A DNA stretch of 64,000 bases, from NCBI RefSeq assembly GCF_026914185.1, contig NC_070561.1, forward strand, positions 2,604,001 through 2,668,000, given 5' to 3'. The notes under the pieces are model-generated. The model worked only from the letters and a program-made list of their open reading frames with translations. It made no database searches and was not told the DNA's origin. Made by a program: the position numbers and the translations under genes. Shown in pieces: positions 1 through 64,000 of the stretch. The stretch comes from Puccinia triticina (Eukaryota; Basidiomycota; Pucciniomycetes; Pucciniales; Pucciniaceae). The stretch's first letter is position 1, and every line of letters begins with the position of its first letter.

Positions 1-246
1 CCATGGAGAGTTTTTAACATCCAATATTCTTATTTAATTGCGGAGTTTACTGTGTGCAAGCAGAGCCGCTTACTCTTACGTAGACCAGACAGACCATATC
101 AGGCTCATAGCGGAGCGCTGAAGAGGTTTGAACGTTGCGAAGAACCAGCGCCAATAACCATAAAAACCCGGAGTTATCTTGAAAGGAGGTGGAGTGCCAT
201 TTCTTATCAGGTGACACACTTTTATTTTGACAGCAATCAGGTCAGA

Positions 247-577
247 CAACGGTGGGCCGCTACGCTACATTTAGTCCGTAGTTCAGCGCAGCGTAGCGGA
301 TCTAAACTACAAATGACAGGGTTTTCCGTTAGCGGGCAGTGATTGCCCGCTACCGCTAACAGGCACCCCTTGAAACTACAGGGCCTCTATCGCCGCTATC
401 AGCGCTAGCAGTGCTATTCAACCGCTAAAAAAGCTGATAGCGCTGTTAGCGCCCGTTAGCGTAGCGTAGCGGCCCGTAGCGGGCGCTACAACTAACGGCA
501 ATGTGTCAGGAACTACGCAACGCTAAACTAGCAGATAGCGCACGCTACGGATAGTTTAGCGTAGCGGCCCACCGTTG
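247..577. mobile_element. 331-bp palindromic CAAC/GTTG-ended MITE, copy 1
   Basis: The left end reads CAACGGTGGGCCGCTACG and the right end is its inverted counterpart (CGTAGCGGCCCACCGTTG, with slight variation). A perfect 7-bp direct repeat GGTCAGA flanks it at 240-246 and 578-584. The interior is almost entirely built from TAGCG/CGCTA words that pair with each other, so a single strand could fold along its whole length. It has no coding capacity. A second copy with the same termini lies at 43,229-43,674 and a relative with other interior words at 16,555-16,945. Confidence 0.82.
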
Positions 578-584
578 GGTCAGA

Positions 585-13760: not shown

Positions 13761-15124
13761 AATCTGCAAAAAAGAATCAAATGGGAAAGTGTTTTCACTT
13801 ATCACCAGGTCCACGATCACATACCAAATTTGCCTGGATCAAATCATTTGGGATTGCTGGCATATCTGATTGTCAGGAAGACTGATGGGACTTGGCAGAG
13901 CCAAATCAATTCCCTCCAAAGTATTTTCCAATTGAGAGACGTAGCATAATCTTACTACCAGAGGGGCTGTAAGAGGACTCAAGATATGATCTTCAAAAAA
14001 GATGAAGCTTTGGTGAAAAAACTGGGCTGGCATCCGCATGGAGAAATGGGCCATGAATCCAACCAGGGAGAATGGCTTACAGTTTTGTTAGTGCGGCCCA
14101 CATCAGAGAAAATGAAAGACAAAAAATCATGAAAAGATTCCAGTGCGTACATACATTGTTTATTCGTCATTCTGAGTACTGCGTGACTCACTTGATTTCA
14201 GAAACCGAGACAAAGGAGAAGGGTGCTTAACCTGTTTAGCTCATCGTAAATTATATAGTCTGAGCTGGTGAAATTTCATACCACCTGAGGCTGAGTGCCA
14301 CCTCTTGTCATCGTGAAGCCAGTGCGTAGTGATTTCCATCGGGTAGGATAGAAACACTTCAGAAAAATAATACATGCAAACCTTCCAAGCTGAAATCTTC
14401 TCGGAACTCACATACATCCAAACCGCCCAGCCGGTTTCCTGACCCGCCCCAAGATCAATCAACAACGCAAAAAGGATGAATAAGATGGCCGTCGAGAGCA
14501 GAAGTCTTTATGATCCATGAGTCTAATCGGTATGTATACATAGGGCCAGTTTAAAATCAAACCCCATCGATGCGGGCTACACGGTGCCTCTCAGGAGGAG
14601 GGCCCCGGCAGGGTCTCTCACAGGAAACGGGTGGTCACACTTGCCCCCCCGGCAGCGACTTGTGCTTCGCACACAGGCGGGCCATCAAGCGCGTCCTTTT
14701 GTGGGTCGCTGTACTGCTCTTTGATTCGACTCCAGAGGGCCTTGCAGTTTTAATCCGTCTCCGTGTGAAAGACCATCCGGAGACGCCGTTCTGAGGGGCT
14801 TGCACGGGAGGCTCTACTCGGTTTCGTCCATTGTCTAGTCACAACCCCTATCACCCCAAATTGTTTTGTTATTTGACAATGTGCTCCAACTAGTAACATG
14901 TTTTTTATCTCCACTCCAGGGGACTTCGCAGCCACCCACATTCATGCCATAAACCACTGGTCTATGGCCTGTTTACTGAGCCGAGGATGCTTCGACAGAA
15001 CGAGAATGGTGGGCTTGTCCATGAGCCGCTCGCTGGGTCGAGAAGCCTTGGTATAAATCAAGAGTGGGCTTGAATCAATGGAATATAATGGGACTGGTCA
15101 TTTGTGCTGATGGCTCGCGAGGCG
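13761..15124. other. Intergenic, degenerate transposon ends
   Basis: No gene is seen. Around 14,570-14,700 there is a phrase of the type CTCTCAGGAGGAGGGCCCCGGCAGGGTCTCTC, related to the CCTCTCTGGAGGAGAGCCCC segment at 26.2 kb and to 38.36-38.44 kb, so this is probably a remnant of the same terminal-repeat family. Confidence 0.4.
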
Positions 15125-15620
15125 ACCTTAACACAAGTCCCAGCCTCCGTGCGGGCGTGCAGCATTTGGCTGGTTGCAAAGTGACCCCGACCGGAGGGAG
15201 GGCCTTGCACACTAAAACACTTTTCTCGCGTGAGCCGATTCCAAGGTTTGGCTGGGAGCAGCCTTGTTTGCATCACCCCACTCTCAACACTCAACATAAT
15301 CTTTCTAGGTTTTGATACCTCATACTTCTACATGTTCTTAATTTTTCCGTATTTTTTCTATCACAAAATGTTGATTGTATCCAGTGAAACAAAATTGTCC
15401 AAGTTCAAGATTTTGAACTTTGATTTGGCTTGCGCTCCATAGGGCAAGGACTGTGCGCAGTTATACTACTTCTTGTTGTCAAGTTTGAAACATGAAGCGG
15501 GGAGAGTACAGAAATTACAGAAATAGAAAAAATACTGAAAAATCAAGCAGATGGTGATCTGTCAGAAAAACCAGAAGAGAAAAAATTCTGATGAGTGGAA
15601 TAGAAACCAGGGGAGAAGTA
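15125..15620. repeat. Dispersed repeat, inverted partner at 37.5-38.15 kb
   Basis: From CGACCTTAACACAAGTCCC to the GTTGTCAAGTTTGAAAC segment near 15,490, the sequence reappears in reverse complement at about 37,530-38,145 with scattered substitutions and an internal insertion. The end CGACCTTAAC resembles the Mutator-like ends at 26.2 and 39.15 kb, so a non-autonomous DNA transposon is likely. No protein is encoded. Confidence 0.6.
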
Positions 15621-16554
15621 ATGGTGTGTACAATATCACGTCCGGCTCACGCGAGCTTTGTGCTTTTGTTCGTAAGAGCATCTCTAACGGAGCCGCGACT
15701 GGGCGTTCGGGGAGGACCCTGGAAACCCCCTATAGAGGTGGGTAACCAAAATGTATGAATTTTTTGGCCAAAACCAAAAAGGGTACTCACCAAATATGTA
15801 TGAATGACCTTTCTTTGGCATGAGGGTACGCACGGAAAATGTACTTTGTTTCTCATGGGGTTGGGGGGTTGGTAACAAAGATTGTATGAAAGTTCATGGT
15901 TGAGCAGAAAAGCACCCCGGTAACCCCCCCCCCCCTTGGCAGCAAGCCAAGGCCAGCCAACAATTTGTTTTTTTCAACTGCCCACCAGCAGGAGGAGGGG
16001 TTCTAGGGGGTTTGAGAGCCCACAACTAGTAGCCAGCTTAATCCTGTTTAATCTAGGCTCTACTTGAATACACAGAAATTCAAGCTAATTCTCAAAAAGG
16101 TAGAAACATGTCAGGGCTCATCAGAGCAAATCAGAGCTCATCTAAGTTTAATTCATCTTTGTAAAAATGTTGGTCAATACTATTGTTCCAGATCTGTTTG
16201 AAAAATTCTTCTCAATCTCTCTATCAGATTCACAGATACCTCGCAGAACACAAAATGACTTAATCTTTTGGCAGTTTAGCTCTCCTCCAATAATCCCTGA
16301 AGATGAAGAAGATGAGGGAATGTGGTATGTTGTGAATAAAAGCATGGATGTGATCTTTGGTGTTGAAAACTGCAAATAAAATCTCAGGTGTGGAAAGTTT
16401 GGCATTGAAGTTGTGCTTGAGTACTTAAAGAAAGCTTGTGGTCACCCCTCTTGGAATGCGGACGAGCTCCCAATTGATCTTTTGTGGTTTTTAATCCACT
16501 TGTTTTTCATTTTTTTTTTGAATTAAAATGCTACAGCTGCCTATAAGATGCTAT

Positions 16555-16945
16555 CAACGAAGGGTAGTTACGCTACGCGTAACGCGTAGATAACGGCAAT
16601 GTAACAAAATTTTTGCTGTTATCTACGCGTTACGCGTAACGGCAGTGCAGTTACGTTATTGCAACACGTTGAGCCGGTTTTTTTTATGCTTGTTGCGTTA
16701 TCCAGGCACGCGGAGCCCTTGAGAACGGGCAAAAAATGAGGCTAAAAAGCCTTAAATAGTCCATTATTGCGTTATCCGGGGGATAACGCAATCACGGGCC
16801 TCACATTTGTGAGGCCCGTTACGTTACGCGCGGGGCCTGAAATGACCCCGTTACTAGTAAAGTAACAGGGGGCCCCGGATAACAGGGGTAGTTACGTTAC
16901 CAAAATTGTGCGGATAACGCAACATAACATAACTACCCTTTGTTG
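16555..16945. mobile_element. 391-bp palindromic CAAC/GTTG-ended MITE, nested
   Basis: The left end is CAACGAAGGGTAGTTACG and the inverted right end is CAACAAAGGGTAGTTATG. A perfect 7-bp direct repeat ATGCTAT flanks it at 16,548-16,554 and 16,946-16,952. The interior is made of ACGCGTAACGCGTAGATAAC-type words that pair with one another. The end sequence CAAC and the 7-bp duplication are the same as in the copies at 0.25 and 43.2 kb, while the rest differs. Confidence 0.75.
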
Positions 16946-17429
16946 ATGCTATGCAGTGAAAAGAGCGGCAAGCTGGCTGCGCAAAAAGGCCCGCTGTGGG
17001 GTTTCTGGGCCAAAAAAAGGGTACGCACCAAATTTGTATGGATTTTTGGGCAGAGCCCTGAGGCTACGCACAAAACTGGTATGAATGCCTTGTGAAAATG
17101 TATGAATTTTGGCCAAATCTTGGATTTTTGGTTACCCACCTCTATAGGGGGTTTCCAGGGTCCTGTTCGGGGGCGAACTTTGGCCGCCCAGGTTCCTGTT
17201 TTGCGCGCTAACGGACCCGCGGAACGACCCTGGGAACATCGCCGGGGGCAGTCCAACCCGCGATCACCTGCTGACTTCTGGGGGTCGCCTCCCGGCCGCA
17301 ATTGACCACACACACCTGCATCCGCTCGTCTTCATACCTCGCAAAGACGGACGACACAGTATAAACACTTGCAGCTCACCAAGGAAGAAAAAAAAACTTC
17401 AGCAATTGAATCAACGAGCCTCGTCTTGA

Positions 17430-17900
17430 TAACGGTGTCTTTTCCGGTCATCGAGAGGAGTAAACACTCCCCTGGATGACCGGTTCTCTCTAATCATTGA
17501 GAGGAGTAAACAAGTAAACACTCCCCTCATTGACCGGTTCTCTATGATGATCGAGGGGGGTGTTTACTCCCCTCGGTGACCGGTTCTCTCCGGAGAGGAG
17601 TAAACACTCCCCTCGAAGACCGGTTCTCTCCGGAGAGGAGTGAACACTCCCTTCGATGACTGGGTCCGTTCCGGTCATCGAGAGGAGTAAACACTCTCCT
17701 CGATGACTGGGTCCGTTCCGGTCATCGAGAGGAGTAAACACTCCCCTCGATGACCGGGTCCGTTCTGGTCATCAAGAGCAGTGTTTCCTCCACTTGATGA
17801 CCGGGTTTGCTCCGGTCATCGAGATACATGCGTCCCGACGACCAGAACGTGACCAGAATGTTACAGTCATCGATATTTGTGCATCCCGATGACCGGAATC
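17430..17900. repeat. Hairpin minisatellite, locus 1
   Basis: Roughly a dozen degenerate units alternate GGTCATCGAGAGGAGTAAACA with its near complement CACTCCCCTCGATGACCGG. Each pair of units is a palindrome. The array lies inside the 15.7-18.1 kb element. Similar arrays are at 39.93-41.11, 47.83-47.99 and 55.22-55.68 kb. Confidence 0.8.
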
Positions 17901-33078: not shown

Positions 33079-34116
33079 TTACTTCGAGTTCTCGAAACGA
33101 TCGATCAGTTTCTCGATCCAGAGGGGAACGAAGGTAAACATTTCGTTCCGAAAGTGATGATAATAGAGGGTATGAAAGAGATCGAGCTGGCCGAACTGGA
33201 TAAGTCTCCGGAACATGATGCCGTAGGAGTCGATGAGTCCGTTGCCATACAACTCTATCCCCTCCTTCTTCTTGCTACCGGGGGAGGAGCTGTGGGCGAG
33301 TTCGGCGCGCATGACCTTGAACACTTGCATCCCGCTCTCGAATTGGCGGGTAGAGAAGAGCGCATTGAGCAGCGCGTTGTACACCACTTGGTTCAGCTTC
33401 CCGCGTTCCTTCAGCCGTCCAATCAGCTCCGTCGCCCGCACTAGCTTCCGCCCCTCTCCTTCCGCCCCATGCGTGCCGCCGCCGCCTGCTGATGATGATG
33501 GCTGGTGGAAGCCGTCCGTGCGCGCTTCGTATTCTTGGATGTGCGCTCGCAGGAACCCTTGGATCAAGGCCGTGTATGTGATGTCCGTCGTCGCTCTACC
33601 ATACATCCATGAACAAAATGAGAATCATCGAGTGCTAGAGAAAGAGAGAAAGGGGAAGACTTACATGCCTCTTTCTTCGATCTCTTCGAGCAATTTGTCG
33701 GCCACTTCGACGTCTTCGATCTTCCCGCTGCGACAGAGGTGATGGATGATCGAGCCGTAAGTGATCGCATTAGGTTCGACGCCAGCAAGCTCCATCATGG
33801 CGAGGAGCTTCTGGATGGTGTGCTGGCCACTGCCGAGCTTAAGGAGGATGTTGAGAAGGATGGTGAAGCTGACGACGTCGGGCTTGACGTGTTGGTCCTC
33901 GAACCGTTTGAGATGGGCGAGCACATGGTCGAGGATGGGGTGTTGGAGCCGGGAATGGTAGTTGAGGAAGTGGTTGAGGGTGGTGGTGTTCGGGACGAGC
34001 CGGTCGGAAAGGGCCTCCAGCAGGCTCTCGGCGCGCTCGAGCATCTGGTGTCTCAAAAGAGCGGAGACGATGGAGTTGATTGCGTCAATCGGGAGCTTGC
34101 TGCCCTTCTTGCGACC

Positions 34117-34152
<36 letters not shown>

Positions 34153-35640
34153 CGAGCCGCCCGGTTTGCCTCCCGGAGCAGCAGAGTGGACGAGCAGCTC
34201 GTCGATCGCCGCGAGTGCGCCGTCCAGGTCGCTCCCGATACAGCCGCTGATCTGGATGCAGCGCATCGTGAAGTCCAGCTCCAGCCCGTCCTCCGCCTCC
34301 ATCCGGCGCACAAACTCCTTCATCAGGGCGCCCGCCTGGCTTTGTTTCGTCACGCCCCGCAGAACCGCCGACCAGAGGTACCGGGACATCCCGCCGAGCC
34401 GCCTGGAAAAGCCGATCAGCTGCTCGACTTGCTCGATCATCCCGTTCTCCGCGAATCCCGTCAACAGGGTCCCGACCACTTTCTGTGTCAGGATGATTTC
34501 CCGTTTTTGGGATGGTTTCTTCTTGGGATCTTCTGAGGAGGAGGGTGTGGTGGTGGTGGTGGTGGTGGGCTGCGGAGTCCAGTCGACAGGCAACCAGCCG
34601 GGCACGCCCTCTGCGCCCTTGACAGCCTCCTGGATCCGCTGCGAGAGATCGAGACAGTACTGGAGGGAATGGGGGTGCTGCGCGAGGAAGTTGCGGCGGA
34701 TGAGATGGACGATCCGTTCGTCCTGCTCGACGAGCCAGTCGGCATGCTCGGGCTCGTCCTCTGCGGGCCGACGCCAGAGAAGGCCGAGCTCGACGGCGCG
34801 GAGGAAGAAGCGGGCGCGGGCGGGCTGGGGCAGTCGGTCGAGCGGGAGCCGGTCGGCAGGCCGGACGCGGGACCAGATCCGGTCGACCAACGAGCCGACC
34901 AGGCGGCCCAGAGGCGGGCCCTCGTTCAGGGTGGATGAGACGACGACCAGTGCGGTGAAGAAGCCTTCGTCCAGGCCGATCGTCGGTGGCGGCTGGCTGG
35001 GATCCGCTGGGCCGTGCCTCCGATCGACGATCTCCAGGATGCCCGTCCAGACCCCGGCCAGCCGGTCGTAGTTCCCCCGCCGGATCTCTTCCCACGCCCA
35101 CTCGCCGACACTGGCCATCCGGGGTCGGAGCGCGCAGTGGATGATGACCTGCTTGGAGGCCTCCCAGACTGCCGCGCGGTGCTGGTGCTCGCTGTTTTCG
35201 GAGAGGCTGAGCTTCTGGCGGACGATGCTCAGGAGGGCTTCCATGACCTGGCGGGACTGGGCGAACTCGAGGCCGGTTTCGAGGAGCAGGATCTGGTTGA
35301 AGCCTTTGGTGACCGCGGAGAGGAAGGGCTCCTGCGGCTGCGGGGCGACGGCTGGATGGAGGGCGGGCTGGGCGGAGTGGATGGCCAGGCCTCGGTGGAG
35401 GTAGACGAGTGCGGCATTGTGGAAGGATGCGATGGCCCGGCTGAGTTTGGGGGGGGCGTCGGCCGGATGGGCGGGATATCGGATCGGCTGCTGCTGGTGT
35501 TCCGGGGGCTGCTGGCTGTGTGTTGGGAACAGGAGCGGGTCGGCTGTTCTGCTGCCTGGCTGGTGGGGTTGTTGTTGGTGGTAGGGTGGGATGTTCTGGC
35601 GGAACCAGTGCTGGGCTGCTGCTGGTCGGAGGGCCCTCAT
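33079..35640 (-). CDS. Pentatricopeptide-repeat (PPR) protein
   Basis: Two exons, 33665-35640 and 33079-33595, are joined by a GTAAGT...GTAG intron that restores the motif ERGIATTDITYTALIQGFL; the product has about 830 residues. Tandem PPR motifs are clear in the C-terminal part: PDVVSFTILLNILLKLG, VEPNAITYGSIIHHLCRSG, TDITYTALIQGFLRAH and LNQVVYNALLNALFSTR. The N-terminal 60 residues are Arg/Gln/Pro-rich and lack acidic residues, which suits a mitochondrial presequence. Fungal PPR proteins bind specific organellar RNAs to stabilise, process or help translate them; the RNA target cannot be told. A Ser/Gly run (about residue 500) comes from a trinucleotide repeat, and a Thr run from a second. 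The gene is unusually GC-rich, which causes long open frames on the opposite strand. Confidence 0.88.
34114..34152. repeat. ACC/ACT trinucleotide repeat inside the PPR gene
   Basis: About 13 triplets encode the Ser/Gly homopolymer run on the minus strand; likely length-variable between strains. Confidence 0.8.
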
Positions 35641-36870
35641 CTTCTGGGGCGCCCTCCTGCTGCTGCTGCCCCGGGCTTAGTCCCTACGGGGGCGGGCTCG
35701 GGGGCCCAGACGACACAGGCGGACCCGCGGCCGGAGGACAGCCAAACTTCCTGGCCCCGGCGGCAAGCATTCCTTCCCCATGCTCCTGTAGTGATGCTCC
35801 TCTCAGCTTCCTTTCTGCTGAGATCACAGATAAATATGTGACCTTCCCCTCCATTAAGAGTGCACCAGAAGATCCCATCCCTATGTTAGCTCCCCCTCCA
35901 TGTGTATCCCTGCCGTAAAAACAGCCCAGATGGGCACCTTGTTGTATCTAAGTATGTCATAGATGTCTCCTTCCTTGCTGTTTTTAGGAATATAAGATAT
36001 ATCCCAATATTTTAGTCAGCATGCCATTGCCTGTGAGACCCCAGCCATGCAACCTATTTTCAGCCCAGTGCTCCCATCCACCATGTCACAGCGTTGGCCC
36101 CAGGACAATGCACAGATGCCACCCCAGTCAGGATCATGGGGCCCAACCTGACCAATTTATAGCCTCACGGTGGCCACAAGGCCCCTCAAGGCATGTCATC
36201 CCGCTGACCCCAGTGGCCGGAGCCTGCCCTCCTCACACCCGTCTCCCTTGCGTTGCAGTAGGCGCCATGACACCACCCTCAAGAACAATCTCCCAAGGAG
36301 GTCAGCATGGATGGCCGTCGGAGGTCCAGCCCTTGCATCATGAGGTTGCCACCCCTGCGCCTTGGTCAGGTTGGCGCCACCAGATACAGGTGCAGGGCAT
36401 GGCTACATGACGTCCTGGCGGTGTGTGGCAGAACGGCGCCATCTGGGAGTACAGCCACTGCAGGGCCCTGCTGGCGTCTGGATGGCCGCCCTGCTGGCAT
36501 CCCAGTTGCCCCGCTGTGTACCAACGGGTACCCGGCGGCATTCCTTAACGTAGATACAAGCAAATTTATTGTGTTTATTGTACCAAGAAATACATGTATT
36601 GTAAGGGTTGGGAGATCCTTTACTGTTTTGAGGCATTGAGGCCTTGGAGCAGTTCTAGACACAATCTTGGGGCTTTATTTCATAGAGATAGCTCAGTGAG
36701 AGAGGGATCAGTCTGGAGTCTCTCTACATACAAGATGGATCATAGAGGAAGGAGGCAAAAGGGAATGAGAAGCTTACCTACCTCAGTGAGACTCAGAGAG
36801 GGATCAGTTGGGGGTCTCTACTGAGCTAGGCCGGGAGCAAGGAAGTGTGGACTATGTAGATGAGAGCTTA
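35641..36870. other. Intergenic, no gene recognised
   Basis: The PPR promoter region should be at the left. Between 36,650 and 36,840 the phrase CTCAGTGAGAGAGGGATCAG(T) recurs twice, about 120 bp apart. No protein is recognised. Confidence 0.4.
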
Positions 36871-37320: not shown

Positions 37321-38440
37321 AAGCTTAACTAAGCCACTCGTGGTGAGCGGGTCTGGGCAGCAGCCCAGTTTCACCAGAGAGGCTTATGAACTAAAACACA
37401 AAGCTCGCGTGAGCCAAGCGTGATATAGAGGCCACTCTTTCTCTCCTGGTTTCTATGCCACTCATCAGAATTTTTTCTTTTTTTGTCTATCTGACAGCTT
37501 ACCATCTTCTTGATTTTTCAGTATTTTTTTTATTGCTGTACTCTCACCCCTTCACATTTGAAACTTGACAACAAGAAGTAGTATGACTGCGCATGGTCCT
37601 TGTCATATGATGCGCAAGCCAAATCCAAGTTTGAAATCATGAACTTCAATAATTTATTTCCAGTAGAAACAATCAAGATTTTGCACTAAGAAATAATGAA
37701 AAATCCAGAACATGTAGAACTATGATGTATCAAAAGCTAGAAAGATTATGTTGAGTGTTGAGAGTGTGGTGATGCAAACAAGGCTGCTCCCAGCCAAACC
37801 TTGGAATTGGCTCACGCAAGAGAAGTGTTTTGGTTATGGGATTCAAAGTTGGCCACGCATGACTTGCATGTACTTTTGCAAGTTGGTGTTCAAGGCTTTT
37901 CTTGAGCACCAACACTCAAAAAACTATTCAAGAAGCTTTGGGGGGTGTAGTGCAATGTGACTTGCATGAACTTTTGCAACTTGGTGTTCAAGAATAAACT
38001 TGAACACCGACTTGCAAAAGTGCATGCAAGTAGCACCTGGCCAACTTTGAATAGTATGCAAGGCCCTCCCTCCGGTCGGGGTCGCTTCACGACCAGCCAA
38101 ATGCTGCACGCCCGCACGCAGGCTGGGACTTGTGTTAAGGTCGCTTCATCATCTCTTCGATGTTTTTATCTGCTTTAAGAAATGTGCCGTTTTCAAAGTA
38201 AGAGTCAATGAATACATGTCACATGGCTGGATGCGCGAGATGAAAGCCAGGAGGTCCTGAAACCTTGAAGAATTGGAATACATGTAGGATCTTTTATATA
38301 TAATAAGGTGTATAATAAAAAATGCACATTTTTCAGTACAGATGATCACCCCGGACTTCGGGCTTTGGGAGCAAGCCTCTCTGTGAGACAGAGACCCTGC
38401 GGGTGCCTTTCGCGCTCTCACCGAGAGGCTTGTGTTAGGC
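37321..38440. repeat. Cluster of degenerate inverted-repeat elements
   Basis: At 37,322-37,390 the phrase CTTAACTAAGCCACTCGTGG...AGAGAGGCTTATGA is the complement of one at 18,061-18,125. At 37,530-38,145 is the inverted copy of the 15.1-15.6 kb repeat, with an internal TTGCAAGTTGGTGTTCAAG phrase repeated three times. At 38,368-38,437 is a copy of the AGCCTCTCTGTGAGACAGAG segment seen at 26.2 kb. These look like stacked remnants of one or two non-autonomous families. Confidence 0.55.
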
Positions 38441-39914: not shown

Positions 39915-41110
39915 ACGTATTCCCCTCAATGGCAAGTCTGTTTGGTCATTGAGGGCTCCCTTTGATGGGCTGTCCTCTTGGTCATTGAGATGAGTATACA
40001 CTCCTCAAGATGATCGGTTTGTTCCGGTCATCGAGAGGAGTATGGACTCCTTAAGATGACCGGAACAAACCGGTCATTGGGAGGAGTATAGTACATCAAG
40101 CGCGTCTGGGCACATGCCCCAGTCCCGCGCGGCCGAGCGCCACTGGGGGTTTGGGGGGTGCCCAGAGGGCTTGATCGGGGAGGTCGGGCAGGCGGCAGAT
40201 CTTGGCACATGTCCAAGTCTGGCTTGGCCGACCCCAAGCTCTGGGCCAATGGGATCACCGCGATAACATATCTAGACTGATGTGTGTACCGGCCATCGGA
40301 TGTGTCAATACACTGCTAGTCTTGGGGAGGAGAGCCCCCATCAAGGAGAGAACTACCCCTCCTCAATGGTTGGTCTGCAAACCGGTCATCAAGAGGGAGA
40401 GACGACTCCCAGCTTCTTGGTGGTCAATACCTGTATCGGTCATCAAGAAGGGAAAGTCTTGATGACCGGTCTGTAGACCGACCATTGAGGAGTGAAACTT
40501 CTCTCCTCGATGGCCGGCATCTTTGGCAGGTGTGGCACCCTCGCTTGGCCTTGGCCCAGGGGGGCTTTGTGCCGAACCCCGCCAACTTGGCCATGTGCCA
40601 AGCGGGGGTTTTGGGTGTGTCACACACACTTTGGGCTTGGCCAAGCGGGCTTGGGCTTTTCACCCCCAAACTTGTGCATGTGCCCAGACAGGCTTTATGC
40701 ACTATATGTACTCCTCTAGATGGCCAGAATGAACCGGTCATTGGGAGGAGTGCATACTCCCTTGATGATCGGAACGAACCGGTCATCAATCTACTCCTCA
40801 AGATGACTGGTTTGTTCCGGTCGTTTTGAGGAGTACATCTTTCTCTTGATGACCGGTTTGTTCCGGATCTTGGGGAGTACATACTCCTCTTGATGACCAG
40901 AACAAACGGGTCATCTCGAGAAGTACATCTTCTTCTCGATGACCAGAACAAACCGGTCATCAAGAATGTGGCGAGTGGCTAGTGATGCCCGGTACAGACA
41001 GGGCATCAACGGAGGTGTGGACTCTTATCAATCACTGGTCTCCACCAGCCATTGAGAGTGTAGAACCTACTGACCAGCCATCGGTGGAGGGTGTATGCAC
41101 TCCACTCAAT
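39915..41110. repeat. Hairpin minisatellite, locus 2 (largest array)
   Basis: Many units of the type GATGACCGGTTTGTTCCGGT / CATCGAGAGGAGTA alternate in both orientations, interrupted by a CCAAG/CTTGG-rich segment at 40,100-40,260 and a related one at 40,520-40,700 (GCTTGGCC, GGCCAAGC). The result is a dense set of overlapping hairpins. No protein is encoded; long open frames on both strands are a by-product of the repeat. Confidence 0.75.
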
Positions 41111-42929: not shown

Positions 42930-44431
42930 TTGCCAGGCGGATTTCCAGGAGATGATAGATCTCAAAGGATTGATAACCACCTTGAAGAGGACAAAGTATT
43001 GGAATCCAATGGACATCAGCTCAGAGTCCCTACTACTCCAGAAGCCGTCCCGCAGACGAAACCACTCTCCATTAAGAATCCCTCAGAGCCGCAGACCAGC
43101 TTCAAGACCCCAGTCAGGCAGAGGGGGGAATCTGAATTCCAGACACCTGCGGAACACTGGGCGCAATCAACAATGGCACAGTCAAATATACAAAGAAATG
43201 ATACACCCAGGCAGATCCCTCCAAGGCACAACGGTGGGCCGCTACGCTACACTACGCTACAGGGCCACTTAGCGTTAGCGTAGCGGCAAAAAGCGCCCAC
43301 CCATTTTGAGTAGCGTTAGCACGCTGTTAGCGCCGCTATGCTGCGCTAACAGCGCGCCAATTGTTTGTTAGTGTTAGCGCGCCGCTAAAGTCACTACGCT
43401 ACAGCACTTTTAGCGGAAAAAAAGGCATTTTTTCAGCTAAAAGCACTGTGGCGCACCGTAGCGCGCGGTCTTTTGCGCCCTGCGTGTGTAGCGTTAGCGC
43501 AATTGCGCGCATCTGCGCTAACGCTACGCTAAAAGCTAAATTATCTGCGCACCCTTTGCGCGTAGCTTTAGCGCAGAGAAGGCGCAATTCCGCTAACGCT
43601 ACACTAAAATTTAGCGGAATTCCGCTACGCTACGCCACGCTAATGCTACGGTTAGCGTAGCTGGCCCACCGTTGCAAGGCACTTATCAACATCTGGAGCA
43701 AGACAAAATAGCCCGCCCAGAGCGCCAGATGGACCTAGATACCTGAATAGTTCCCATTTCTTTAGTAGTAATAGTAATTCTGGCTCAGAACACGCATCAA
43801 GTGTCCCAGAAATTCCAAATGTTGTTAACAATCCAGATACTCCATTCAGAAATGCCCTACATTTGTACACAGAAAATCTTAACTTTGTTGTATAAAGAAT
43901 TACACAAAGTAACAAAGAATTGTCTTCAGATCTTAAAAAATTGTGCCACAAAGTTACACAGCGTGTAGATGAGCAAGTGAATTCTGAAGATGACACCTTC
44001 ACTTTCATATTGAATAAATTGGAGAGTATGAATAAGAAGCTTGATGAAGCGCCCTCTGCTCCAGAGATATTGAGTACCCAAGTTACTAGATCCCTAGCTA
44101 GAACTGAAGAACTGGTTGAAGATCAAGAAAATACCAACCAGGAAATATTACAGAAATTGAATTTGTTGGAATCACACTTCAGAACCCTGCAGAATGATAC
44201 TTAGGATAAAATTACATTACAATTCACCACATTTGAAGACATAGTAAATAGGTTTGAAAAGCAAAACATGGACACAGGGTCAAAACAAGATAAATTAGAA
44301 GATATAATTTTACAAGTAGAAAATTCTACTAGAGGCCAAGGCGGCTTTGCCGCTGCAAACTCAATGAACAGCCTCCCACTTTCAATCATCCCTCCTATTG
44401 ACAGGCTAACCAGATTTTATAGCCCAAAATG
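42930..44431 (+). pseudogene. Ty3/gypsy-type gag N-terminal region, interrupted by a MITE
   Basis: From MPGGFPGDDRSQRIDN the frame continues through PPRH at 43,231. Omitting the element at 43,229-43,674 and one target copy makes it continue in frame (LSTSGARQNSPPRAPDGP...). Then come NNPDTPFRNALHLYTENL, a coiled-coil stretch (LNKLESMNKKLDEAP, NQEILQKLNLLESHFRTLQ) and TTFEDIVNRFEKQ. Stops occur at TAA near 43,893, TAG near 44,202 and TGA at about 44,429. No capsid or zinc knuckle is present here; the 56-58 kb fragment would supply the next part of such a polyprotein. Confidence 0.55.
43229..43674. mobile_element. 446-bp palindromic CAAC/GTTG-ended MITE, copy 2
   Basis: It has the same left end as copy 1 (CAACGGTGGGCCGCTACG) and a matching inverted right end (GCTGGCCCACCGTTG). 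A perfect 7-bp duplication CAAGGCA is at 43,222-43,228 and 43,675-43,681. The interior consists almost wholly of TAGCG/CGCTA words. It lies in a gag-like reading frame that becomes continuous when the element is removed, which confirms the borders. Confidence 0.88.
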
Positions 44432-47829: not shown

Positions 47830-47986
47830 GGCTTGCCACCAAGAGGACAGAACATCAAGGGGAGTGGGAGTAGCAACTCCCCTCAATGACCAGCACCGAC
47901 CAATCATTGAGGGGAGTAGCAACTCGCCTCAATGACTGCTACTCCCCTCAATGACCAACACCAATTGATCATTGAGGGGAGTTGAA
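47830..47986. repeat. Hairpin minisatellite, locus 3 (left of the retrotransposon)
   Basis: Units CAATGACCAGCACCGACCAA / TCATTGAGGGGAGTAGCAAC alternate. The array is cut at 47,986 by the Ty3/gypsy insertion and resumes at 55,219. Confidence 0.75.
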
Positions 47987-55213: not shown

Positions 55214-55218
55214 TTGAA

Positions 55219-55680
55219 ACTCCCCTTGATTTCTGGTCTCTGTCAGTCATCAAAGGGAGTAGCGACTCCCCTTCATGATCCGTCTGGGTTGGTTACCAAG
55301 AGGAGTTGCTACTCCCCTTGATGAGACCAGTCATTGAGGGGAGTATCAACTCCCCTCAATGATTGGTTGGCGTTGGTCATTGAGGGGAGTTGCTACTACC
55401 CCTGATGATTTTTTTGAAGGGAGTAGCAACTCCCCTCGCTGACTGGTCTGGGTTGGCCATCAAGAGGAGTTGCTACTCCCCTTGATGACCAGTCTGGGTT
55501 GGTCATCGAGAGGAGTTGCTACTCCCCTCAATGACCAGTCTGGGTTGGTCATCAAGAGGAGTTGCTACTCCCCTTGATGACCGGTAGGGACCGGCGACCT
55601 AGGAGAGTCCACTTAATGCCCGGTATGTGCCGGTCACCAAGGGGAGGTGGGAGTAGCAACTCCTCAATGATTGGTCTGCT
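55219..55680. repeat. Hairpin minisatellite, locus 4 (right of the retrotransposon)
   Basis: Eight or more units GGTCATCAAGAGGAGTTGCT / ACTCCCCTTGATGACCAGTC alternate with little divergence between neighbours. Together with 47,830-47,986 it formed one array before the retrotransposon arrived. Confidence 0.8.
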
Positions 55681-58380: not shown

Positions 58381-59024
58381 TGTTAAGAGTCAAGCTTGTG
58401 CCTCAGCCTGAGCTCCTGACTCATGTAGCAGACATGTCCTGCAAATATCACAAGACATGCAATCCTCTCGGATTCTTCCTCTAGTCTCCAAACTTCTCAC
58501 AACTCAACCTAATTTGTCTCATTCGTCTTGCTCATCCCTTGCCTTTTGCTCCGCTCAACCTTTAATGTATCCGACTCAAGTCTCTGCTCATCAAACTCAT
58601 TAGGAAAGACTCTCTCAGCCAGCCAAACCAACAAACCCGACAATCTCAACATACTTAAACTCAAAAGCATTCTCATTCCTCTTGCCTTCTCCGGGGAACC
58701 AGCTCAATTCTACTCTTGACATTATCCTTGATAGTCTCAACAAATCATCAATATTCATCTTCCTGACTATCCGTTCCTCCAGAAGACAAACAATCAATCA
58801 GTCTTCAAACTCGTCCAAACCACAAGCTCAATCAACCGCCTCAGCAATCAAAGCTCTCTTTGGTCGTATGTTGTGCTCTTGTTTCTTTTTTTATCTTTTG
58901 CCCTTATTGACAATGTTTTTTTTTAGTCTGCTCTTTCTTCCCATCTCTCTTATCATCCACTTTTTGTCATGCTCTTCTTTTGTTGTGTTTGCCTTCAGGT
59001 ACATTTTCTTTTTCTTTTTTTGTC
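58381..59024 (+). repeat. 5' LTR of the copia element (right end not fixed)
   Basis: Aligned with 63,350-64,000, it shares the sequence to at least 59,024; the true end lies between there and the gag start at 59,154. The two LTRs differ by a handful of substitutions and small indels. Confidence 0.85.
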
Positions 59025-63349: not shown

Positions 63350-64000
63350 TGTTAAGAGTCAAGCTTGTGCCTCAACCTGAGCTCCTGACTCATGTAGCAG
63401 ACATGTCCTGCAAATATCACAAGACATGTAATCCTCTCGGATTCTTCCTCAGCTAGTCTCCAAACTTCTCACGACTCAACCTAATTTGTCTCATTTGTCT
63501 TGCTCATCCCTTGCCTTTTGCTCCGCTCAACCTTTGTATCCGACTCAAGTCTCTGCTCATCAAACTCATTAGGAAAGACTCTCTCAGCCAGCCAAACCAA
63601 CAAACCCAACAATCTCAACATACTTAAACTCAAAAGCATTCTCATTCCTCTCGCCTTCTCCGGGGAACCAGCTCGATTCTACTCTCAACATTATCCTTGA
63701 TAGTCTCAACAAATCATCAATATTCATCTTCCTGAATATCCGTTCCTCCAGAAGACAAACAATCAATCAGTCTTCAAAAACATCCAAACCTCAAGCTCAA
63801 TCAACCGCCTCAGCAATCAAAGCTCTCTTCGTTTGTATGTTGTGCTCTTGTTTCTTTTTTTATCTTTTGCCCTTATTGACAATGTTTTTTTTTTAGTCTG
63901 CTCTTTCTTCCCATCTCTCTTATCATCCACTTTTTGTTGTGCTCTTCTTTTGTTGTGTTTGCCTTCAGGTACATTTTTTTTTCTTCTTTTTTTGTCTTCA
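63350..64000 (+). repeat. 3' LTR of the copia element, truncated by the window
   Basis: Begins TGTTAAGAGTCAAGC and follows the 5' LTR to the last base of the window. The target duplication at the far side is not visible; on the left it would be the bases before 58,381 (CTTAC). Confidence 0.9.

What the first reader, a model, noticed from the sequence alone, without database searches (positions are those of the whole stretch)
43222..43681. A family of fully palindromic MITEs defined by CAAC/GTTG ends and 7-bp target duplications
Three elements (247-577, 16,555-16,945, 43,229-43,674) all start CAAC, end GTTG and have perfect but different 7-bp duplications (GGTCAGA, ATGCTAT, CAAGGCA). Two share the end CAACGGTGGGCC and a TAGCG/CGCTA interior; the third has CAACRAAGGGTAGTTA and an ACGCGTAACGCGTA interior. 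The whole body consists of self-complementary short words rather than ordinary sequence. Most cut-and-paste superfamilies leave 2, 3, 4, 8 or 9 bp; 7 bp is less common (P and Dada-like elements are among the few reported), so the mobilising transposase is not obvious. At 43.2 kb, removal restores a reading frame, which proves the borders.
Basis: partly seen in the sequence, partly recalled or inferred. Interest (0 to 1): 0.8.

Follow-up and report, generated by a model that had tools for sequence, protein, structure and literature searches.

The report
Miniature hAT7 transposons in leaf rust
Three short DNA inserts in a wheat leaf rust chromosome are miniature, gene-less relatives of a recently described jumping-gene family (hAT7) that leaves 7-base target copies; two of them look built from short words like those near the ends of full-length elements.

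Summary
In detail: three elements (247-577, 16555-16945, 43229-43674) have inverted ends and perfect, different 7-bp target duplications. They belong to high-copy families: 733 exact CAACGGTGGGCC ends against 4 control hits and 295 exact CAACRAAGGGTAGTTA ends against 0. A perfect 7-bp duplication flanks 47 of 63 examined elements. The 43.2-kb element sits in a repeat whose paralogous copies carry the uninterrupted site in 5 of 5 checked.

The mobiliser is not obscure. Four full-length elements (7.9-9.7 kb) with these or related ends and 7-bp duplications carry hAT transposase and TET-like dioxygenase genes. This fits hAT7, named by Kojima in 2025 (PMC12730594); I saw no hAT7 MITEs described in the parts I read.

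New here: the MITE families; bodies of two of four families resembling hAT7 subterminal sequence, not the interior; high CpG with little TCG and excess CpG transitions. No coding partner was found for the second end type. 'Fully palindromic' is overstated.

The parts
43222..43228 (.). left copy of 7-bp target duplication CAAGGCA
   Evidence: 5 of 5 paralogous sites examined carry the 7 bp once
43229..43674 (+). 446-bp MITE, CAACGGTGGGCC end type, member of the 446-477 bp family
   Evidence: best alignments to 12 other copies at 87-92% identity
43229..43240 (+). left terminal inverted repeat CAACGGTGGGCC
   Evidence: same end on full-length elements L031, L032
43663..43674 (-). right terminal inverted repeat
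43675..43681 (.). right copy of target duplication CAAGGCA
240..246 (.). left target duplication GGTCAGA
247..577 (+). 331-bp MITE, CAACGGTGGGCC end type, different body (331 family; 92-99% identical to three fetched copies)
   Evidence: its right end matches the left end of L031 over 55 bp at 89%
578..584 (.). right target duplication GGTCAGA
16548..16554 (.). left target duplication ATGCTAT
16555..16945 (+). 391-bp MITE, CAACRAAGGGTAGTTA end type (type B); lies inside a 1452-bp stretch with its own inverted ends and 8-bp duplication
   Evidence: aligns with all 20 fetched type-B elements
16946..16952 (.). right target duplication ATGCTAT

Best explanation
These are non-autonomous (MITE) members of the hAT7 group of hAT DNA transposons in what is very probably Puccinia triticina. 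Shown: same or related ends and 7-bp duplications on MITEs and on four full-length elements with hAT transposase and TET-like dioxygenase genes; high copy number; uninterrupted paralogous sites. Inferred: the transposase acts in trans on the CAACNNNGGG ends, cuts and pastes the MITE with a 7-bp stagger (target nTnnnAn, the 7-bp counterpart of the usual hAT nTnnnnAn, the latter recalled), and is loaded by short words (CGCTA, GCTAC, CTAAC and the like) repeated in subterminal DNA. Bodies of the 331 and 446-477 families would then be dense arrays of such loading sites in both orientations, which would explain the self-complementary look without one long palindrome.
For: Full-length elements with the same 12-bp ends and perfect 7-bp duplications: L031 (8572 bp) and L032 (8268 bp); a 7.9-kb copy on C18 with one mismatch in one end. 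A second lineage on C16 (9713 bp, ends CAACACTGGGTC, CTCAGGC on both sides). Transposase and dioxygenase matches lie in all four. L031 pieces hit PF20515 Tet-like oxygenase (4.9e-70), hAT dimerisation region PF05699 (1.9e-10) and PF14372 (9.5e-6, just under its cut-off). Duplications: type A 31 of 42 perfect (two of the 42 are L031 and L032), 38 of 42 with at most 1 mismatch; type B 16 of 21 and 20 of 21; mismatched-pair controls with at most 1 mismatch 15 of 1722 and 3 of 420. Duplication consensus: T at 2 or A at 6 in 51 of 94, binomial p 3e-8 against 0.27, sites taken as independent. CGCTA is 55.6 per kb in 20 type-A MITEs v 0.51 in the window background, and in L031 it is concentrated in the outer ~0.6 kb. 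With 16 bp of each end removed, 5-mer enrichment of the 446-477 and 331 families correlates with subterminal DNA of the two lineages above and of relative L064 (r 0.24-0.47; null 99% 0.16-0.17), not with L031 interior (-0.07, -0.10). hAT7 with 7-bp duplications is described in PMC12730594; Hermes BED domains bind subterminal repeats (PMC10368747 passages).
Against: No type-B element with a transposase was found: of the 100 listed ends (295 exist), the one unpaired end within 12 kb of a listed transposase hit belongs to a MITE copy split by a ~1-kb insert, while that transposase's element has another end. MITE bodies share little alignable sequence with full-length elements beyond the ends, 55 bp at most with L031, so derivation by internal deletion is not shown. 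Word similarity is weak for the 386 family (0.10-0.18 to the same lineages, null 99% 0.15) and for type B (at most 0.23, null max 0.21); the 446-477 and 331 families do not clearly resemble the ends of the more distant relatives L065, L066 and L135 (0.17, 0.04, 0.18 and 0.02, 0.00, 0.15). 16 of 63 duplications are imperfect, 5 of them with 2 or more mismatches. Of 17 of the first 30 type-A ends that had no exact partner nearby, 7 have a GTTG end followed by the duplication with at most 1 mismatch within 1.5 kb and 10 have none. Transposition and binding were not assayed.
Confidence: 0.9

Rival explanations
1. The self-complementary bodies exist for another reason: hairpin or double-stranded RNA formation (a silencing trigger or decoy) or foldback-type structure; resemblance to subterminal words is secondary.
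For: All three elements fold far better than dinucleotide shuffles (z -8.8 to -12.2). Small RNAs map to young transposons in the related stem rust fungus (PMC8444563 passages). Word similarity is weak for two of four families.
Against: In two families the same words mark the outer ends of the coding elements and are rare in L031 interior; dense inverted words give hairpins as a by-product.
Confidence: 0.12
2. Type B (16555-16945) is moved by a different superfamily and only converges on CAAC ends and 7 bp.
For: No type-B element with a transposase found; end and words differ from type A.
Against: Same CAACNNNGGG core and 7-bp duplication, with a pyrimidine at 2 in 15 of 16 and a purine at 6 in 16 of 16 perfect sites; hAT7-like relatives already vary in ends and subterminal words.
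Confidence: 0.1
3. A P, Dada or KDZ transposase moves them (P and Dada were the first reader's examples).
Against: An element with these very ends carries hAT domains; no P, Dada or KDZ domain was hit in 8 reading-frame pieces of L031 at E up to 0.1.
Confidence: 0.03

Closest known systems
hAT7 DNA transposons of Puccinia (Kojima 2025, PMC12730594; abstract, section 4.2 and search passages read)
   Same: 7-bp duplications, hAT transposase, TET/JBP-type dioxygenase in twenty families from six Puccinia species including P. triticina
   Different: In the main text 'MITE' and 'nonautonomous' occur 0 times, 'non-autonomous' once and about TET genes, 'subterminal' 0 times. Its supplement and the Repbase entries were not read.
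hAT MITE families such as Mar (Drosophila) and BniHAT (Brassica), seen as titles and abstract starts in a search listing only
   Same: Short, gene-less elements of the hAT superfamily
   Different: hAT elements usually make 8-bp duplications (stated in PMC12730594); the details of these MITEs were not read
MITEs of rust fungi in the TE survey PMC12210899 (passages read)
   Same: Reports MITEs as 0.6 to 5.0% in Pucciniales genomes, so these copies may already be counted in bulk
   Different: No hAT7 assignment or anatomy in the passages seen
Ac/Ds and Hermes subterminal repeats (Ac/Ds recalled; Hermes PMC10368747 passages)
   Same: Short repeated words next to the ends load an hAT transposase
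   Different: Here the words fill much of the MITE body, and binding is inferred

Membership tests
hAT superfamily | hAT transposase in the partner elements (dimerisation region, RNase-H fold) | tested here: met
   PF05699 1.9e-10 above cut-off; PF14372 9.5e-6, 26.2 bits against a cut-off of 27
hAT superfamily | 8-bp target duplication | tested here: not met
   7 bp perfect in 47 of 63, no perfect 8 bp; hAT5, hAT6 and hAT7 are described exceptions (PMC12730594)
hAT7 | hAT with 7-bp target duplication | tested here: met
   for L031, L032, the C18 and C16 copies, and the MITEs
hAT7 | Position of the transposase in the hAT7 clade | not tested
   No tree was built; the published hAT7 sequences are in a supplement that was not read
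hAT7 | Type-B MITE linked to an hAT7 coding element | tested here: inconclusive
   No such element found; only the first 100 of 295 ends were listed
MITE | Short (under about 600 bp), inverted ends, target duplication, no gene, high copy number | tested here: met
   331, 391 and 446 bp; 75 intact pairs of one size class; absence of a gene judged from length and make-up, no gene search run on them
P / Dada | P or Dada transposase in elements with these ends | tested here: not met
   hAT domains instead in L031; no such domain in 8 pieces
KDZ (Kyakuja-Dileera-Zisupton) | KDZ transposase | tested here: not met
   No KDZ domain in 8 pieces of L031

The most novel reading that the evidence does not exclude
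The transposase-loading words of hAT7 are CpG-rich and thus methylation-sensitive, and the element's own TET-like dioxygenase keeps them usable, so the MITEs parasitise both transposase and demethylase. The bodies would have been shaped to keep CpG words while losing TCG, the triplet most prone to the rust C-to-T process.
Probability: 0.2. Interest if true: 0.65.

Novelty: new member of a known kind. Interest (0 to 1): 0.42.

Why it matters
It names a likely mobiliser for a conspicuous repeat family in a cereal rust and gives high-copy substrates for hAT7. Because the presumed partner carries a TET-like enzyme and the MITEs are CpG-dense with a C-to-T decay signature, they offer a readable record of methylation-linked mutation against transposon counter-measures that existing methylation data could test.

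Tried and rejected
P, Dada and KDZ as mobiliser: no such domain in 8 pieces of L031, hAT found instead. Direct internal deletion of L031 as origin of the bodies: only end-proximal similarity. A type-B partner: 83 transposase hits on C1-C5, typed from two lists (150 scored of 884 and of 823 candidates), were compared with the 100 listed type-B ends, 35 of them unpaired within 2 kb. Two places fell within 12 kb: a paired MITE, and an unpaired end on C1. I first took that end for a broken MITE; on rechecking it is the right end of a 1396-bp element (C1:2777558-2778953, left end one mismatch, duplication one mismatch) that aligns to the window MITE in two parts with a ~1-kb insert between; 3 reading-frame pieces from it gave no Pfam hit. 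Left ends of the C3 and C11 copies were not found in the stretches fetched.

TCG loss: strong in the 446-477 family (14 of 3494 NCG, 0.4%) and in four copies of the 331 family (4 of 244, 1.6%), weaker for type B as a family (83 of 1490, 5.6%) than its window copy suggested (1 of 66); window background 24%. The first CpG estimate on 12 copies (3.5-3.8% v 0.5-0.9%) shrank with 32 copies to 3.8% v 1.1%. CpG inside CGCTA does not decay clearly less than outside: 3.3 v 4.5% in the 446-477 family but 5.7 v 3.1% in four copies of the 331 family, so no selection on the words is claimed. The Pfam scan of the left-flank peptide gave nothing. Paper searches (7 answered): a 7-bp hAT phrase found 0 papers; hAT7 with transposon found 4, of which the Kojima paper is about transposons of that name; two searches on rust or hAT MITEs listed 10 and 12 papers, none by title or abstract start about hAT7 MITEs. 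Many subscription papers are not in that library.

Rows dropped: the CpG counts use 32 of 42 type-A rows (left out: L031 and L032, L034 and L043 of odd length, L038 and L041 of the 386 family, four of the 331 family counted apart) and 20 of 21 type-B rows (L120, 1386 bp, left out). Fetched elements were the first listed with both ends exact, on C1-C4 (type A) and C1-C3 and C5 (type B), besides the three in the window; not a random sample.

Full report
Where it lies. The window is G000:C4:2604001-2668000 of a 122.8-Mb, 18-contig assembly. A protein named PtA15_2A54 of Puccinia triticina lies on a record of 8,997,879 bases, exactly the length of contig C2, so the genome is very probably P. triticina, wheat leaf rust; that the name denotes haplotype A is inference.

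The elements. Each of the three has inverted CAAC...GTTG ends and a perfect, different 7-bp duplication. The 331- and 446-bp elements share CAACGGTGGGCC, but they align with one another and with a 386-bp element only in stretches of up to 26 bp, at the ends and in shared words; so at least three bodies use this end. The 391-bp element has CAACRAAGGGTAGTTA (type B). Exact ends number 733 against 4 control hits and 295 against 0; 75 intact 449-479 bp pairs exist against 0.

Target duplications. Of 42 type-A elements (two of them full-length) 31 have a perfect 7-bp duplication and 38 have at most one mismatch; of 21 type-B elements 16 and 20. Mismatched left-right pairs give 15 of 1722 and 3 of 420. 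No perfect 8-bp duplication was seen, and sliding the register drops identity from 0.91-0.93 to 0.25-0.28. Over the 47 perfect sites position 2 is T in 27 (C in 13) and position 6 is A in 24 (G in 17), i.e. roughly nTnnnAn; the usual hAT nTnnnnAn is recalled. All elements counted were chosen for exact ends. Of the first 30 type-A ends with 3 kb around them, 17 had no exact partner; 7 of these 17 have a GTTG end with a duplication (at most 1 mismatch) within 1.5 kb and 10 do not.

Proof of borders. The left flank of the 43.2-kb element matches 23 places in the genome, itself included. In 5 of 5 paralogous copies examined, left and right flanks abut with exactly 7 bp of overlap. The interrupted repeat was not read through with the insert taken out.

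The partner. L031 and L032 (C2, 8572 and 8268 bp) have the exact ends and perfect duplications. Pieces of L031 hit a Tet-like 2OG-Fe(II) oxygenase (PF20515, 4.9e-70) and an hAT C-terminal region (PF05699, 1.9e-10); the same reading frames are listed in L032. A C18 copy of about 7.9 kb has ATTGTGG on both sides and matches to both genes. A second lineage with CAACACTGGGTC ends has CTCAGGC on both sides of a 9713-bp element on C16, with matches to both genes inside. Other transposase relatives, each seen at one end only, end in CAATGGTGGGCC, CAACGGTGGGCT, CAACGGTGGGCC or CAACGGTGGGTC. The core CAACNNNGGG is common to all of these ends but the first, and to type B. PMC12730594 describes hAT7, hAT with 7-bp duplications, with twenty TET-bearing families in six Puccinia species including P. 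triticina (abstract, section 4.2 and passages read).

Bodies. In 20 type-A MITEs CGCTA occurs at 55.6 per kb against 0.51 in the window background. Along L031 it is dense in the first 500 and last ~600 bp and sparse between. With 16 bp of each end removed, 5-mer enrichment of the 446-477 and 331 families correlates with subterminal DNA of the two lineages and of L064 (0.24-0.47; null 99% 0.16-0.17) and not with L031 interior; with L065, L066 and L135 ends it is near or below the null limit. For the 386 family and type B the signal is near the null limit throughout. Hermes transposase binds subterminal repeats through BED domains (PMC10368747 passages). I infer that the bodies of two families are arrays of loading sites; binding is not shown.

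CpG and TCG. CpG observed/expected is 1.39 in 20 type-A MITEs against 0.66 in the background, yet TCG is 0.6% of NCG against 24%. Against dinucleotide shuffles TCG is low in one copy of each of four families (0-1 observed, 4.9-6.6 expected; 1-3 of 1000 shuffles as low), and also in the ends of L031 (2 observed, 7.1-7.3 expected; 10 of 1000); of 304 CpG-bearing background windows 1 is at or under 2%. Among 32 copies of the 446-477 family, transitions at CpG are 3.8% against 1.1% at other C/G; in 20 type-B copies 9.6% against 3.6%, and 32.5% (26 of 80) at TCG against 7.1-12.5% in other contexts; in four 331-family copies 4.8% against 0.4%. PMC12730594 cites TCG hypermutation in Puccinia repeats, and the related stem rust fungus methylates CG in young transposons (PMC8444563 passages). 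The simplest reading is mutational erosion of TCG, not design. The bolder reading, coupling to the element's TET-like enzyme, is kept as the novel case.

Limits. The sample is the first listed exact-ended elements, so perfect duplications may be over-represented; copies of one family are related, so the CpG counts are not independent; type B lacks a coding partner; nothing was assayed.

Noticed in passing
15713-17164: A 1452-bp stretch with perfect 16-bp inverted ends (AGGACCCTGGAAACCC) and an 8-bp duplication GTTCGGGG; the type-B MITE lies inside it.
   Followed up: no
17437-17820, 39971-40970, 47852-47985, 55214-55650: Four clusters of about 46-bp self-complementary units (GGTCATCGAGAGGAGT...ACTCCCCTCGATGACC), another word-array repeat unlike the hAT7 MITEs.
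   Followed up: no
58381-59021 and 63350-63991: Direct repeat pair about 4.97 kb apart in several blocks at 94-98% identity, probably the long terminal repeats of a retrotransposon.
   Followed up: no
15119-15676 and 37383-38147: Inverted copies of one repeat about 22 kb apart, blocks at 80-93% complementarity.
   Followed up: no
34001-36000: GC 64% against 52% and 48% in the neighbouring 2-kb bins.
   Followed up: no
L066 (up to base 2310) and L135 (250-560): hAT7-like relatives whose outer ends carry GTAAC/GTTAC words (L066) or a mix of GATAAC and GTAGC words (L135), suggesting subterminal words turn over between transposase lineages.
   Followed up: partly
L137:2558-3499 and L136:1-454 (C1:2777558-2778953): A type-B MITE copy split by a ~1-kb insert; the two MITE parts overlap by 5 bp in the alignment, as a 5-bp target duplication of the insert would give.
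   Followed up: partly
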